This document shows, one piece after another, positions 30,637 through 38,357 of a DNA stretch of 38,357 bases. A program made the position numbers and the translations under genes. The notes under the pieces are model-generated. The model had not been told where the DNA came from and searched no databases. It worked only from the letters and a program-made list of their open reading frames with translations. The stretch spans positions 1 through 38,357 of the IMG/VR virus record IMGVR_UViG_3300036761_000511. One strand, 5' to 3'. The number at the start of each line of letters is the position of its first letter. Positions within the stretch are counted from its first letter, which is position 1. The DNA is from a virus.

Positions 30637-31466
30637 CGGCGGCGGATTTATTCGCCGGCATCGGCGGCTTTCGTTTGGGCTTGGAGACTGCGGGATTTGA
30701 ATTCAAGTGGGCTTGCGAAATCGATCCCTACTGCCGCAAGGTGTATCTGAAACACTGGCCTGGCACCGATCCGTTTTACGAGGACATCCGAGAGGTACAC
30801 GATGCGCCGGAAGTCGATCTGCTCTGCGGGGGATTCCCCTGCCAAGACGTGTCTCTTGCCGGTAAACGCGCCGGAATTACCGGAGAGCGAAGCGGATTGT
30901 GGTCCGAGTTCGCCCGTCTTATTGGGGAAGTTCGACCGCGCTACGCACTCATTGAGAACGTCCCAGGGTTGCTTGTTCGAGGGCTTGAGCGAGTACTCTT
31001 CGACCTTTCCGAGATCGGGTATGATGCGGAATGGCACAGTATACCGGCTGCCGCCTTTGGTGCCCCGCATATCAGGGACAGGGTGTGGATTATTGCCTAC
31101 GCCACGGGCGATGAGGATCGGAAGGATCGATCTTCAAACGGCAGTGACGATGTGGCCGACGCCTCAAGCATCCGACGCAAAGAACGCCGCGGGCTGTTCT
31201 CAAGATTACATCAACAGACGCCGGAGAACGGGTCGGTCGAAAGTGTCAGAGATCGTAATCGATGGGCAAGTGGGCAATGGGCAGTTGAACCCCGTCTGGG
31301 TGAGTTGGTTGATGGGCTTTCCCCTGAATTGGCTGGAAGATTCATTCGAGTGGCTAAGGGTTGCCCTGATCGATCCAGCAAGCTCCGAGCGCTCGGAAAT
31401 GCCGTAGTGCCGCAAGTGGTCGAGTGGATCGGGCGGCGGATAATGGAAGCAGAGGCGGGCGCGTGA
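30633..31466 (+). CDS. DNA C5-cytosine methyltransferase
   Basis: The 277-residue enzyme transfers methyl from S-adenosylmethionine to cytosine C5. Motif I DLFAGIGG is at residues 5-12, motif IV GGFPCQDVS with catalytic Cys70, motif VI ENV at 108-110, motif VIII-like APHIRDRVWIIAY near 143-155, and motifs IX-X in LRALGNAVVPQVVEWIG. The target-recognition region (about 160-245) is short. No restriction nuclease partner is present, so it probably protects phage DNA. It starts at GTG 30633. A second long frame lies inside it (30802-31407). Confidence 0.93.
   Translation: MTAADLFAGIGGFRLGLETAGFEFKWACEIDPYCRKVYLKHWPGTDPFYEDIREVHDAPEVDLLCGGFPCQDVSLAGKRAGITGERSGLWSEFARLIGEVRPRYALIENVPGLLVRGLERVLFDLSEIGYDAEWHSIPAAAFGAPHIRDRVWIIAYATGDEDRKDRSSNGSDDVADASSIRRKERRGLFSRLHQQTPENGSVESVRDRNRWASGQWAVEPRLGELVDGLSPELAGRFIRVAKGCPDRSSKLRALGNAVVPQVVEWIGRRIMEAEAGA
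30802..31407 (+). CDS. Overprinted frame inside the cytosine methyltransferase
   Basis: A 201-codon frame in +1 relative to the methyltransferase, starting at ATG 30802 with AGAGG (30791-30795) 6 bases upstream. Its translation looks like a real family: SLRTSQGCLFEGLSEYSSTF, PRSGMMRNGTVYRLPPLVPR, TMWPTPQASDAKN, GQLNPVWVSWLMGFPLNW. I recall this pattern (PTP..SDAKN, LNPxWVxWLMGFP) from phage proteins found near or within cytosine methyltransferase genes. Both frames appear constrained. It may be a second protein on the same DNA, or a conserved shadow. Role unknown. Confidence 0.5.
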   Translation: MRRKSICSAGDSPAKTCLLPVNAPELPESEADCGPSSPVLLGKFDRATHSLRTSQGCLFEGLSEYSSTFPRSGMMRNGTVYRLPPLVPRISGTGCGLLPTPRAMRIGRIDLQTAVTMWPTPQASDAKNAAGCSQDYINRRRRTGRSKVSEIVIDGQVGNGQLNPVWVSWLMGFPLNWLEDSFEWLRVALIDPASSERSEMP

Positions 31467-32605
31467 CGCCGGACACAATCCCCGAAGAGGGGACTTTCGT
31501 TCAGGGTGACGCGCTGGTGAAGTGTCCCTACCCGTGGTTCGGCGGCAAGGCGCAAGTCGCGCCGCTGGTCTGGAATGCGTTCGGCAATGTCCATACCTAT
31601 ATCGAGCCATTCTTCGGGGGTGGAGCCGTACTGTTACGCGCGCCCTGGCCGTCAAAGCGCACAGAGACGATCAATGACATTAACGCCTGGCTCTGCAATT
31701 TCTGGCGGGCGGTCAAGACCGATCCCGATCAAGTGGCATTCTATGCCGCCGATCCTGTGTCCGAGCTGGATCTCCATGCGCGGGGCGACTGGTTGTTCTA
31801 CCGTCCCGGCGTCGATGTGGATTTCGTCGAACGGCTGCGATCCGATCCCGATTACTACGATCCAAAGAGCGCCGGGTGGTGGTGCTGGGGGCAGAGTTCG
31901 TGGATCGGGGATAATTGGGGGCGGAAGGAATGCCGTTCACTCCCCCACCTGAGCAGCGCGGGGATGGGCGTCAAGGGGATGGGCGTCAACCGGAAACGCC
32001 CCCACCTGGGCGACGCGGGGGTGGGCGTCAACCGGCAACGCCCCCACCTGGGCGACGCGGGGGTGGGCGTCAACCGGCAACGCCCCCACCTGGGCGACGC
32101 GGGGAAGGGCGTCAACCGGCAACGCCCCCACCTGGGCGACGCGGGGATGGGCGATGAAACAACGCGGCTGGTATCGATCCGGGAGTACATGCGGCAATTG
32201 TGCGAGCGCATGGCCGGGGTTCGGGTGTGCTGCGGCGATTGGTCGCGGGTACTCGGACCGGCAATCACAATATCGCATGGCAGATGGAGTTGCGGCGTGT
32301 TCCTCGATCCACCCTATGCGGTTGAAGATCGGGGCTCGGTGTACGGCGAACACGAAGATCGGGACGTTGCCAATGACGTGCGCGAGTGGTGCAGGGAGTG
32401 GGGCAAGCATCCGAGCATGCGGATCGTGCTTTGTGGATACGCAGGGGAACACGACGATCTAACTGTTGACGGCTGGACTACGATCATCTGGAAGGCATCG
32501 GGTGGCTATAGTAATGGTAACCGGTCAGACAACAACGACAACCGGGGGCGGGAACGCATGTGGCTGTCGCCGCACTGTCTGCGGCAAGAGGTCATGGGAC
32601 TATGA
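31463..32605 (+). CDS. D12-class DNA adenine N6-methyltransferase
   Basis: Dam-like alpha-class enzyme. From GTG 31463 it has 380 residues: YPWFGGK at 23-29 (S-adenosylmethionine-binding start), EPFFGGGAV at 48-56 and catalytic DPPY at 282-285 (CGVFLDPPYAVEDRGSVY). Between them, residues about 173-228 are four 14-residue repeats (GVNRQRPHLGDAG type) lying in the target-recognition region. The C-terminus (RIVLCGYAGEHDDL, GWTTIIWKASGGYS) is family-typical. It overlaps the cytosine methyltransferase stop and probably joins it in protecting phage DNA. Confidence 0.9.
   Translation: MTPDTIPEEGTFVQGDALVKCPYPWFGGKAQVAPLVWNAFGNVHTYIEPFFGGGAVLLRAPWPSKRTETINDINAWLCNFWRAVKTDPDQVAFYAADPVSELDLHARGDWLFYRPGVDVDFVERLRSDPDYYDPKSAGWWCWGQSSWIGDNWGRKECRSLPHLSSAGMGVKGMGVNRKRPHLGDAGVGVNRQRPHLGDAGVGVNRQRPHLGDAGKGVNRQRPHLGDAGMGDETTRLVSIREYMRQLCERMAGVRVCCGDWSRVLGPAITISHGRWSCGVFLDPPYAVEDRGSVYGEHEDRDVANDVREWCREWGKHPSMRIVLCGYAGEHDDLTVDGWTTIIWKASGGYSNGNRSDNNDNRGRERMWLSPHCLRQEVMGL
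31979..32146. repeat. Four 42-bp tandem repeats in the adenine methyltransferase gene
   Basis: Units at 31979-32020, 32021-32062, 32063-32104 and 32105-32146, nearly identical, plus degenerate half-units before (31937-31978) and after. Each unit contains GGGCGT...ACGCCC, a perfect 6-bp inverted repeat, so each can form a hairpin. The length (14 codons) keeps the frame, so copy number can change without breaking the protein. Confidence 0.95.
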
Positions 32606-33072: not shown

Positions 33073-33178
33073 GGGAGCCTCGGAATTTCCCACAGCAACA
33101 ACTAAAGAGGTCCGTAAGCCGAACCGAGTCGGGAACCTTTCCGAGGCTCCCACCGGCACGGTGAGGCGAGCGGGCCTC
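33073..33178 (+). ncRNA. Candidate structured leader RNA before the helicase
   Basis: GGGAGCCTCGGAA (33073-33085) and TTCCGAGGCTCCC (33139-33151) form a perfect 13-bp inverted repeat 53 bases apart. Inside, TTCCC (33087-33091) pairs with GGGAA (33131-33135), leaving a 39-base loop that contains AACAACTAAAGAGG. A second hairpin GAGGC/GCCTC (33163-33178) ends 4 bases before the helicase ribosome site. This may be a cis-regulatory leader, a small RNA or a replication-linked structure. It matches no riboswitch I can name. Confidence 0.5.
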
Positions 33179-35449: not shown

Positions 35450-35746
35450 GTGAGAGAAATCTGCATCGAGTGCCACCACGTGATCAAGAATGCGTCGCCG
35501 ACGACCGAGCTACACGACGAATGCTCGCGCTTGCGGGACAATCGGGCGAACTGTGCCAGGAATAAATCAACCACCACCGGGAGAAACGGCGACCGGCCGT
35601 CGGAATTCGCGGCCAAGGGGGGCACGGCCCCACGCCCGGCGCGCAAAACGTCGCTCAACTTCTCGGATATCATGCACGCGCCACCAGGGCAGGCGATCAA
35701 ATACCTCGACCGCATTCTGGCCGGGGAATCGGTGTTGACCGGATAA
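35450..35746 (+). CDS. Zinc-finger-like early protein
   Basis: GTG 35450 is chosen because GGAGG (35441-35445) lies 4 bases upstream; an upstream ATG 35420 lacks such a site. The 98-residue product starts REICIECHHVIKNASP and has DECSRLRDNRANCARN, so four Cys and two His that could bind zinc. The middle is basic and disordered, and the C-terminus (SDIMHAPPGQAIKYLDRILA, then GESVLTG) is helical. The tail resembles the tiny frame at 36186 (RILNGEMSVTG). Confidence 0.6.
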   Translation: MREICIECHHVIKNASPTTELHDECSRLRDNRANCARNKSTTTGRNGDRPSEFAAKGGTAPRPARKTSLNFSDIMHAPPGQAIKYLDRILAGESVLTG

Positions 35747-35772: not shown

Positions 35773-36081
35773 ATGGGAACTTTCGACGAGGTAATCGCGG
35801 AACTAAAAACGCGGCGAGACAAGATCACCGTTGCCATTGAGGCGCTCGAAGAACTCAGCGGCGGGACGTCCAACGAATCAAGCGTCCGAGAAAACCGGAC
35901 GGTTGCGGTAGAGCCTAAGACCACGCGCCGTGTAGACGGAGCCATCGGAGACCCCGAGGCCGCCGACCTTGAGGCAGGCAATGATCGCACCCGATGCCTG
36001 CGGCCCGTCTTCCAGGATCTCTTGGATTCTCTCACGCAGAGTTGCGGACTTCCCTCCAGGCGGTCGGCCGATCCGGATTGA
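35773..36081 (+). CDS. Switched DNA-binding gene, present (disrupted) orientation
   Basis: Starts at ATG 35773 behind GAGGGGAG. Residues 1-53 are a helical N-terminus (MGTFDEVIAELKTRRDKITV, AIEALEELSGG) of a family I recall with a GRPPG linker and C-terminal winged helix. From 35934 the DNA is inverted, so the frame runs on through an unrelated 49-residue tail (VDGAIGDPEAADLEAGND) and stops at 36081, giving 102 residues. The missing middle is readable on the - strand, and the missing end on the + strand at 36122-36189. Restored, the protein has 138 residues. Confidence 0.75.
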   Translation: MGTFDEVIAELKTRRDKITVAIEALEELSGGTSNESSVRENRTVAVEPKTTRRVDGAIGDPEAADLEAGNDRTRCLRPVFQDLLDSLTQSCGLPSRRSADPD

Positions 36082-36121
36082 TTGTGCCTTCACGAGTGCG
36101 CCTTTCTTGGCAACACGGCGC
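35925..36121. other. Inverted (possibly invertible) intragenic DNA segment
   Basis: GCGCCGTGT (35925-35933) and ACACGGCGC (36113-36121) are perfect 9-bp inverted repeats around 179 bases. Reading the segment flipped joins, in frame at both edges, ...PKTTRRV to AKKGALVKAQSIRIGRPPGG, and GVSDGSVYTA to LNGMKAKGMIVIGKDG, ending at TGA 36189. No frame change or stop occurs. On the - strand the inner segment now shows IGRPPGGKSATLRERIQEIL. No recombinase gene is in the window. It may be a phase-variation switch, a fixed inversion or an assembly artefact. Confidence 0.8.
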
Positions 36122-36189
36122 TCAACGGGATGAAGGCCAAAGGCATGATCGTGATCGGCAAGGACGGCGTGTGGAGCCTGGCGAAATGA
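36122..36189 (+). pseudogene. Detached C-terminus of the switched DNA-binding gene
   Basis: In the present orientation this 3' fragment (LNGMKAKGMIVIGKDGVWSL, AK, stop) has no start of its own with a good ribosome site. It is the last helix and wing of a winged-helix domain. It is joined to the rest only when 35934-36112 is flipped. Confidence 0.7.
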
Positions 36190-36242
36190 TCGGCGAGTTG
36201 ATCATCCGCATACTCAACGGAGAAATGAGCGTGACAGGATAA
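36186..36242 (+). CDS. Possible 18-residue peptide
   Basis: ATG 36186 overlaps the TGA of the DNA-binding gene (ATGA), the usual junction style here. It encodes MIGELIIRILNGEMSVTG. The end (RILNGEMSVTG) resembles the C-terminus of the zinc-finger-like protein at 35450 (RILAGESVLTG), so it may be a duplicated and eroded tail. Low confidence. Confidence 0.25.
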   Translation: MIGELIIRILNGEMSVTG

Positions 36243-36300
36243 CCAGAACGGCGACTATCGGCCCTGCGCTTAGCGGAGCCGCGCTTTCAGGGGGTGAGTA

Positions 36301-36593: not shown

Positions 36594-36625
36594 TCCTTGC
36601 GCGCGCGAACGATTGCGCGGAGGCG
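36594..36625 (+). promoter_or_regulatory. Hairpin leader before the ParB-methyltransferase
   Basis: TCCTTGC, then CGCGC pairing with GCGCG (plus G-T and A-T pairs inside) and GGAGG. It is the counterpart of 17-49 and has the same order: motif, hairpin, ribosome site, GTG start. It marks the point where the two cassettes begin. Confidence 0.45.
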
Positions 36626-36627
36626 AC

Positions 36628-37833
36628 GTGCAGGTAGAGCAAGTCCCAGTAGCAAGTCTAAAGCCCAACCCGGCCAATCCCCGCAAGAACGATCCGGCGG
36701 TGGATGCCGTCGCCCGCTCGATTGCCGCATTCGGTTTCAATAACCCGATTATCACGGACGGGGATCTCAACGTCGCGGCTGGTCACACGCGGATTAAGGC
36801 GGCGCTGGCCCTGGGCCTCGATACGGTTCCAGTGCTGCGCATACCGGGTCTGACTGGCTCCAAGTTTAAGGGCTACGCGGTAGCCGACAACCAAACTGCG
36901 ACCATCGCAACCTGGGACGATGAGAAGCTCCATGCTCTCGTTGCCGAGTTGAACCTCGAGGATGATTTCGATATCTCGACGCTGGGCTTCTCGGACAACT
37001 CCCTGGCCGACATCCTGCGGGACGCTGAGGCGGACGCCGGGATCGATGACGTGCCCGATCCTCCTGCTGTGCCGGTTACGCAGCCGGGCGACCTTTGGCT
37101 GCTTGGCCCGCACCGCGTGTACTGCGGCGACTCCACGTCCGAGGCGTCATCGAAGGCGGCCTGCGGTAATCTGCGGCCGTTCATCATGGTCACAGATCCG
37201 CCCTATGGCGTGGAGTACGATCCCGCCTGGCGTGAGCTTGTCGGGTCTGGACCCCGGTCGGTCGGCAAGGTGGCAAACGACGACCGCGTGGATTGGACTG
37301 AAGCATATCTGCTCTTCGGTGGCAACGTCGCTTACACGTGGTCGCCGCCCGGCGACCACGTCATTCTGACCGGGCAATCACTCCAGCGGGCGGGATTCCA
37401 GATTCGGGCGCAGATCATCTGGCGTAAACAGCATTTCGTGATTTCTCGCGGTGCTTATCACTGGCAACACGAGCCATGCTGGTACGGCGTTAGAAAAGGT
37501 GCGAGTGCGCAATGGTGTGGTGACCGCAAGCAGCCGACCGTTTGGGACATCGCAAATCGTTCAGCCTTTGGCGGTGTCGAAGACGACGAGTCAACCAATC
37601 ACGGCACGCAGAAGCCCGTCGAGTGTATGGAGCGCCCCATGCGCAACCACGGCAAACGAGGCGACGTCGTCTACGATCCGTTCGTCGGTTCAGGCACGAC
37701 AATCGTCGCTGCGGAGCGCTCGGGACGCATCTGCTGTGCGATTGAATTGGACCCAGGCTACTGCGATGTCACAGTCGAACGCTATGAGAAGTTGACGGGC
37801 ACTAAAGCGAAGCGGGAGGCCGCGTGTGGGTGA
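36628..37833 (+). CDS. ParB-like domain fused to N4/N6 DNA methyltransferase
   Basis: GTG 36628 lies 4 bases after GGAGG. Residues 1-100 are a ParB/sulfiredoxin-like domain (VEQVPVASLKPNPANPRKND, ITDGDLNVAAGHTRIKAALA) with AGHTR at 51-55. Residues 150-401 are a beta-class methyltransferase with DPPY at 190-193 before FVGSGTT at 352-358. This fusion is common in phages; the ParB-like part is an NTPase-type domain without the parS-reading helix-turn-helix. It is the third methyltransferase here, so probably anti-restriction. It overlaps the next terS start by 8 bases. Confidence 0.9.
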   Translation: MQVEQVPVASLKPNPANPRKNDPAVDAVARSIAAFGFNNPIITDGDLNVAAGHTRIKAALALGLDTVPVLRIPGLTGSKFKGYAVADNQTATIATWDDEKLHALVAELNLEDDFDISTLGFSDNSLADILRDAEADAGIDDVPDPPAVPVTQPGDLWLLGPHRVYCGDSTSEASSKAACGNLRPFIMVTDPPYGVEYDPAWRELVGSGPRSVGKVANDDRVDWTEAYLLFGGNVAYTWSPPGDHVILTGQSLQRAGFQIRAQIIWRKQHFVISRGAYHWQHEPCWYGVRKGASAQWCGDRKQPTVWDIANRSAFGGVEDDESTNHGTQKPVECMERPMRNHGKRGDVVYDPFVGSGTTIVAAERSGRICCAIELDPGYCDVTVERYEKLTGTKAKREAACG

Positions 37834-38329
37834 GGCTGGCGTCCCTATTGCGGCAGAAAAGCGGGCAGAGATGCGAGAGGTTTACCTCGAGCATCGGACA
37901 TGCCAAAGCGTTGTTAAGGCGTGTGATGTTTCGTGGCAAACCGCTGAGCGATATCGCGTTGAGGACAAATGGGATAAGGCGTGCGCTCGCGTCGATCAAC
38001 TCGCCGAAGACCTTGCCGTCAAGAAAATCGGCAAACGGCGCGCTGACACTATCCGCATTGCCTATGCCTCAATCGTCAAGATGGCCAAAGACTTGGAGAG
38101 TAAAACATCTCTCCCGTGGAGCGCTCCCGATGTTGACAAGATGGCTCGTCTGGTTGAATTGCTGTCTGGTAGTGCCGACAGCCGCCCCGGCATCGCAGGC
38201 GATGGTCCGGTTGTCATCCTACCCGACGACGGCAGCGATCCCGACTTCACCCCCCCGGAGCCAAATGCAGCAGGCGCAGTTCCGCCCTCAGTCGATCCCG
38301 CAGTGGAAGTTCCTGGCGAGCCGAGCTGA
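37826..38329 (+). CDS. terS: Terminase small subunit, allele 2
   Basis: The 167-residue product starts at GTG 37826 behind GGGAGG. Residues about 10-50 form a helix-turn-helix (REVYLEHRTCQSVVKACDVS, WQTAERYRVEDKWDKA), then a helical oligomerisation part (IRIAYASIVKMAKDLESK) and an acidic, Pro-rich tail. It shares with allele 1 only the LPDDGSDP region and the terminal AGAVPPSVDPAVEVPGEPS, so the DNA-binding halves differ. In a closed genome this gene precedes the same terL, making it the allele connected to the rest of this assembly. Confidence 0.8.
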   Translation: MGEAGVPIAAEKRAEMREVYLEHRTCQSVVKACDVSWQTAERYRVEDKWDKACARVDQLAEDLAVKKIGKRRADTIRIAYASIVKMAKDLESKTSLPWSAPDVDKMARLVELLSGSADSRPGIAGDGPVVILPDDGSDPDFTPPEPNAAGAVPPSVDPAVEVPGEPS

Positions 38330-38357
38330 CGCGACGGTGTACGGTGGCGCGGTAGGC
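38265..38357 (+). CDS. terL: Terminase large subunit, 5' fragment (second copy of its start)
   Basis: ATG 38265 follows GGAG by 4 bases and opens the frame MQQAQFRPQSIPQWKF, which continues into residues that match terL from 533 on, up to YGGAVG at the window end. So it is the true start region of terL in the allele 2 context; the gene continues at 618 after closing the circle. It overlaps terS allele 2 by 65 bases. Confidence 0.8.
   Translation, partial: MQQAQFRPQSIPQWKFLASRADATVYGGAVG
38273..38357. repeat. Terminal direct repeat, right copy
   Basis: Identical to 533-617, ending at the last base of the window. It joins the terS allele 2 cassette to the common terL gene. Confidence 0.95.

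What the first reader, a model, noticed from the sequence alone, without database searches (positions are those of the whole stretch)
35925..36121. Intragenic DNA inversion whose reversal restores a complete DNA-binding protein
Seen in the sequence: 9-bp perfect inverted repeats (GCGCCGTGT / ACACGGCGC) flank 179 bases. As given, the gene at 35773 is cut off, its middle part (IGRPPGGKSATLRERIQEIL) reads on the - strand, and its end (MKAKGMIVIGKDGVWSLAK) reads on the + strand without a start. Flipping the segment in silico gives one uninterrupted 138-residue frame from 35773 to 36189, in frame at both joints. Chance would rarely do that. Known: intragenic inversions that switch C-termini exist in bacteria. 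Inference: a phase-variable phage regulator giving either a full winged-helix protein or a form with a short alternative tail. The short repeats and absence of a recombinase leave host-encoded inversion, template switching or an assembly error as alternatives.
Basis: partly seen in the sequence, partly recalled or inferred. Interest (0 to 1): 0.87.

Follow-up and report, generated by a model that had tools for sequence, protein, structure and literature searches.

The report
Flipped segment inside a phage gene
In this environmental phage a 197-base piece of a small DNA-binding-protein gene sits back to front between two 9-base mirror-image repeats, which breaks the gene; it looks like a rare copying accident rather than a proven on/off switch, because no second copy in the other orientation could be examined.

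Summary
Perfect 9-bp inverted repeats (35925-35933, 36113-36121) flank 179 bp, and flipping the unit joins three gene pieces into one 138-codon frame (35773-36189). This is more than chance, though not because the frame is open, since open frames after a flip are common in this GC-rich phage. Among 402 inverted-repeat pairs of 8 bp or more, this flip gives the largest coding-score gain. The flipped segment regains the phage's codon usage and purine bias. PadR/TrmB/PaaX-type winged-helix matches run across the right joint and are absent as given. So a real winged-helix gene was probably broken by an inversion.

Phase variation is not shown. The record encodes no serine or tyrosine recombinase, the site likeness is only 9 bp, the nearest relatives lack the gene, and the record's own siblings are hidden from the searches. 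The best explanation is a recent short-repeat inversion (replication template switching or strand annealing) that inactivated an accessory phage gene and now dominates the sampled population. Rivals are a host-driven invertible switch and a library or assembly artefact. Novelty is modest: a new example of a known kind of mutation.

The parts
35773..35924 (+). 5' part of the split gene: start codon, N-terminal likely coiled-coil (VIAELKTRRDKITVAIEALEEL) and basic linker
   Evidence: open frame, coding score 0.291 bits/codon
35925..35933 (.). left arm of the 9-bp perfect inverted repeat, GCGCCGTGT
35934..36112 (-). inverted middle part of the gene (RIGRPPGGKSATLRERIQEIL...SDGSV); reads in the gene's frame only on the - strand; an isolated - strand ORF 35878-36093 is its remnant
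   Evidence: codon score 0.194 in the restored frame, purine bias, weak PF0610-like_N match
36113..36121 (.). right arm of the inverted repeat, ACACGGCGC; codes YTAL at the joint of the restored winged helix
36122..36189 (+). 3' part of the gene: end of the recognition helix and wing (NGMKAKGMIVIGKDGVWSLAK, stop), cut off from the 5' part
   Evidence: coding score 0.673 bits/codon; PadR/TrmB/PaaX matches run into it only when restored
35773..36081 (+). frame as given: 102 aa, true N-terminus plus a 48-residue out-of-gene tail; probably a non-functional product
   Evidence: tail score 0.018; no Pfam or PHROG match under E 0.05

Best explanation
An accessory phage gene for a small protein (N-terminal helix, basic linker, C-terminal winged helix, probably a DNA-binding regulator) was broken by inversion of 197 bp between two chance 9-bp inverted repeats. 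The most likely route is replication or repair: the growing 3' end ending in GCGCCGTGT pairs with the complementary arm, copies the spacer backwards, and switches back at the other arm. Alternatively, ssDNA annealing at the arms, helped by the phage's own Erf-like annealing protein and exonuclease, could do it. The event is recent, since the pieces carry no further damage, and the flipped form dominates the sequenced population. Shown: the repeat, the three pieces, the restored frame, the coding and winged-helix signals across the joints. Inferred: mechanism, direction (intact first, flipped later), recency, dominance. A rare back-flip by the same route is possible but would not be a programmed switch.
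For: Exact joints at the repeat arms and restored frame. First of 402 inverted-repeat flips by coding gain. Codon usage and purine bias of the segment fit the phage only when flipped. Winged-helix models (PadR, TrmB, PaaX, MCM_C) match across the right joint, while the - strand piece alone matches only PF0610-like_N and the as-given frame matches none of them. A 30-residue piece over the right joint matches PadR in register (E 0.06). Only this breakpoint pair has more than 5 bp of homology. No serine or tyrosine recombinase in the record. Erf-like annealing protein, RecE-like exonuclease and RuvC-like resolvase present. Spacer inversion between short inverted repeats by polymerase template switching is documented, and the general mechanism was first proposed in phages (PMC8604942).
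Against: Documented template-switch spacer inversions have spacers of a few bp, and that study searched only up to 70 bp and saw them only with arms over 9 bp; 9-bp arms 179 bp apart are outside that range. No intact orthologue was found, so the ancestral orientation is inferred from composition and domain logic, not comparison. Winged-helix matches stay below Pfam gathering scores.
Confidence: 0.6

Rival explanations
1. A genuine invertible switch: a recombinase supplied by the host flips the segment reversibly, so the phage population holds an ON form (138-aa winged-helix protein) and an OFF or alternative-tail form.
For: The segment is intact in both orientations and flips exactly in frame. 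Intragenic invertons are a recognised class (Chanin et al. 2024, cited in PMC11868660). The gene looks regulatory.
Against: No serine or tyrosine recombinase in the record. Site likeness is only 9 bp with no palindromic or core structure, and repeats of this length are common here (110 pairs of 9 bp or more). The OFF tail looks non-coding. A short-read assembly would probably have broken at this 179-bp segment if both orientations were common (inference).
Confidence: 0.15
2. Library or assembly artefact: the phage carries the intact gene and the flip was made by chimera formation (for example during whole-genome amplification) or by the assembler.
For: Short complementary repeats are where amplification chimeras form (own knowledge). 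The contig shows another population or assembly irregularity at its ends: two small-terminase versions sharing the same C-terminus and leading into the same large terminase.
Against: A 9-bp repeat is shorter than assembler word sizes, so both new joints must have been in reads. Two matching joints without deletion need two events or a true inversion. The pieces are otherwise undamaged.
Confidence: 0.18
3. Coincidence: the as-given arrangement is the natural one and the restored frame is an accident of high GC.
For: Flips often leave open frames here; no orthologue of the restored protein was found.
Against: Best coding gain of 402 flips, codon and purine fit, winged-helix match across the joint.
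Confidence: 0.05

Closest known systems
Template-switch spacer inversion between short inverted repeats (PMC8604942)
   Same: Perfect short inverted repeat, complete spacer inversion inside coding DNA, reversible in principle, no dedicated recombinase
   Different: Spacers there are a few bp and mostly change one or two amino acids; here 179 bp and gene disruption
Short-inverted-repeat inversions of chloroplast genomes (described in PMC12928735)
   Same: Inversions bounded by about 11-24 bp inverted repeats, flip without a dedicated enzyme; spacers commonly 5-50 bp, occasionally far longer
   Different: Organelle genomes, longer arms; here inside a coding gene with 9-bp arms
Intragenic invertons (Chanin et al., Nature 2024, as cited in PMC11868660)
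   Same: Invertible-looking segment wholly within one gene, in frame in one orientation, early stop in the other
   Different: Those are called from reads with both orientations, in bacterial genomes (own knowledge); here one assembled orientation in a phage and 9-bp arms
Phage Gin/Cin-type serine invertase switches (own knowledge)
   Same: Inversion that exchanges the C-terminus of a phage protein
   Different: Those use sites of about 26 bp, an encoded invertase and tail-fibre genes; none of these is seen here

Membership tests
Intragenic inverton (phase-variable) | Inverted repeats flanking a segment within one gene | tested here: met
Intragenic inverton (phase-variable) | Both orientations observed in one population | not testable with these tools
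   No reads; the record and its siblings are withheld from collection scans
Intragenic inverton (phase-variable) | A recombinase able to act, phage- or host-encoded | tested here: inconclusive
   No PF00239 or PF00589 match in the record; the host is unknown
Gin/Hin-type serine invertase system | Crossover sites of about 26 bp with imperfect dyad | tested here: not met
   Likeness of the two sites ends at 9 bp
Gin/Hin-type serine invertase system | Linked invertase gene | tested here: not met
Short-inverted-repeat spacer inversion (template switching) | Perfect inverted repeat of about 9 bp or more exactly at both breakpoints | tested here: met
   9 bp is at the lower edge of documented cases
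   Spacer 179 bp; limit in PMC8604942
Short-inverted-repeat spacer inversion (template switching) | Ancestral sequence in the other orientation in a relative | tested here: inconclusive
   Nearest relatives L083/L084 lack the gene or do not cover it
PadR-like / winged-helix regulator | Match above the curated Pfam cut-off | tested here: not met
   Best scores 17.7 (PF0610-like_N, cut-off 33) and 15.4 (PadR, cut-off 27)
PadR-like / winged-helix regulator | Recognition-helix and wing pattern in register | tested here: met
   PadR positions 4-50, TrmB 32-54, PaaX 32-59 aligned across the joint; weak scores

The most novel reading that the evidence does not exclude
A phage regulator gene that is switched on and off by reversible inversion between repeats of only 9 bp without a phage recombinase, using replication or annealing functions as the flipping machinery.
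Probability: 0.1. Interest if true: 0.62.

Novelty: new member of a known kind. Interest (0 to 1): 0.3.

Why it matters
It is a clean example of a medium-sized (about 180 bp) inversion at a very short repeat inside a gene, longer than the template-switch inversions read about here. If reads showed both orientations it would extend intragenic switching to phages with minimal sites. If they show one, it is a reminder that an in-frame flip alone does not make a switch, and it gives an estimate of how often such flips look convincing by chance.

Tried and rejected
Close relatives of the restored protein: none in IMG/VR by exact 8-residue words. None better than E 0.2 in phage records, where the top hit MT835520 lies in a different kind of HTH protein and does not cover the wing. 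Plasmids gave only Streptomyces proteins with a C-terminal winged helix and a Burkholderia stretch at E 0.2-1. Only one match at E 0.0017, in a read-through frame, in 132 genomes of a phylum that has a related terminase. A degenerate SVYTAL motif scan gave nothing. The methyltransferase neighbour is too common to find kin. Terminase found kin L083/L084 and a Zixibacteria MAG, but none was seen to carry this gene.

Wing test: the 20 residues right of the joint are the best of 49,313 window peptides against the Streptomyces protein. That protein was itself found with the whole restored query and is not found with the left part alone, so the test is biased and is not counted as independent proof.

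First version of the flip ranking clipped long genes and was replaced.

Full report
What is there. The window is a whole IMG/VR record of 38,357 bp, classed linear, of a tailed phage. It has large terminase, portal, major head protein, minor tail proteins, Erf-like annealing protein, RecE-like exonuclease, HNH and RuvC-like nucleases, DnaB helicase and DNA methyltransferases. The genes assigned all read on the + strand. At 35925-35933 and 36113-36121 there is a perfect 9-bp inverted repeat with 179 bp between; the likeness does not go beyond the nine bases. Flipping 35925-36121 turns a 102-codon frame and loose pieces into one 138-codon gene, 35773-36189.

Is it more than chance? In this roughly 59% GC record 1913 of 7632 flips of 197 bp on the + strand have a spanning open frame of at least 138 codons (many inside long genes), and there are 110 inverted-repeat pairs of 9 bp or more at gaps of 30-600 bp.

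Four other tests do favour it. (1) Scoring every flip between 402 inverted-repeat pairs by the change in codon-usage score of the best set of + strand genes, this one is first (+15.6 bits; median -26.8; three above 10). (2) The segment's codon score in the restored frame is typical for true genes of the phage and beats 99.1% of open wrong frames. (3) The purine excess of the coding strand is missing in the segment as given and normal when flipped; low-purine stretches also occur inside true genes, so this is supporting only. (4) Winged-helix profiles (PadR, TrmB, PaaX, MCM_C) align through the right joint of the restored protein, while the - strand piece alone retains only a PF0610-like_N match and the as-given frame matches none of them. 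All scores are below curated cut-offs.

What it is. An accessory gene for a small probable DNA-binding protein has been split by an inversion whose two breakpoints lie in a 9-bp inverted repeat. No other breakpoint pair tried in the region has more than 5 bp of inverted homology. The tail that the as-given frame would add to the N-terminus has no coding signal (0.018 bits/codon). The gene is not conserved in the nearest relatives: L083 and L084 (large terminase 79%, small terminase 72% identical). L084 keeps the neighbouring 36301 gene (45%) but has other genes, including a RusA-like one, where the split gene would be; L083 does not reach that far. The RusA reading is by eye.

How it probably arose. 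Polymerase template switching between inverted-repeat arms inverts the spacer and has been described in coding DNA (PMC8604942), with much shorter spacers. Inversions at short inverted repeats also occur in chloroplast genomes (PMC12928735). The phage's annealing protein and exonuclease could promote pairing at short arms (inference). No site-specific recombinase of the serine or tyrosine type is encoded; a host enzyme cannot be excluded. The intact pieces imply a recent event or continuing reversal. An unbroken contig across a 179-bp segment suggests that one orientation dominates, if the assembly was from short reads (inference, not tested).

Phase variation or not. The defining test, both orientations in one population, could not be made. 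Collection scans leave out this record and near siblings: a 21-mer that is in the window returns nothing. The prior for an enzymatic switch is lowered by the 9-bp sites and absent recombinase. I put fixed or dominant accidental inversion at 0.6, artefact at 0.18, programmed switch at 0.15 and coincidence at 0.05.

Novelty. As an inversion at a short repeat inside a gene it is a new member of a known kind. It would become interesting only if reads show switching.

Noticed in passing
1-617 and 37826-38357: The two contig ends carry different small terminases (phrog_4044/Sf6-like at 62-589; DUF1804/phrog_756-like at 37826-38329) with nearly the same C-terminus, both leading into the same large-terminase start; 467-617 and 38219-38357 are 85% identical, the last 92 bp 98%. 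Suggests a circular or permuted genome with a small-terminase swap in the population.
   Followed up: partly
33073-33151: 13-bp perfect inverted repeat (GGGAGCCTCGGAA / TTCCGAGGCTCCC) with a 53-bp loop just upstream of the DnaB-like helicase gene, shortly after a TTGACA-like box; a leader hairpin or another invertible candidate.
   Followed up: partly
31939-32153: 42-bp tandem repeats (about 4 copies) inside the ORF 31424-32605, whose start resembles a DNA methyltransferase.
   Followed up: no
35690-35746 and 36187-36243: Two neighbouring short frames end alike (...RILAGESVLTG* and MIGELIIRILNGEMSVTG*); and 35643-35659 resembles 36110-36126 over the right joint (15 of 17 bases). Possibly a local duplication.
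   Followed up: no
36613-37833: ParB-like N-terminal domain fused to a DNA methyltransferase; many relatives in IMG/VR at about 50% identity.
   Followed up: no
L088: A Candidatus Zixiibacteriota MAG contig holds a related large terminase (49%) and a DnaB-like helicase, a possible prophage and hint of host range of distant kin.
   Followed up: partly
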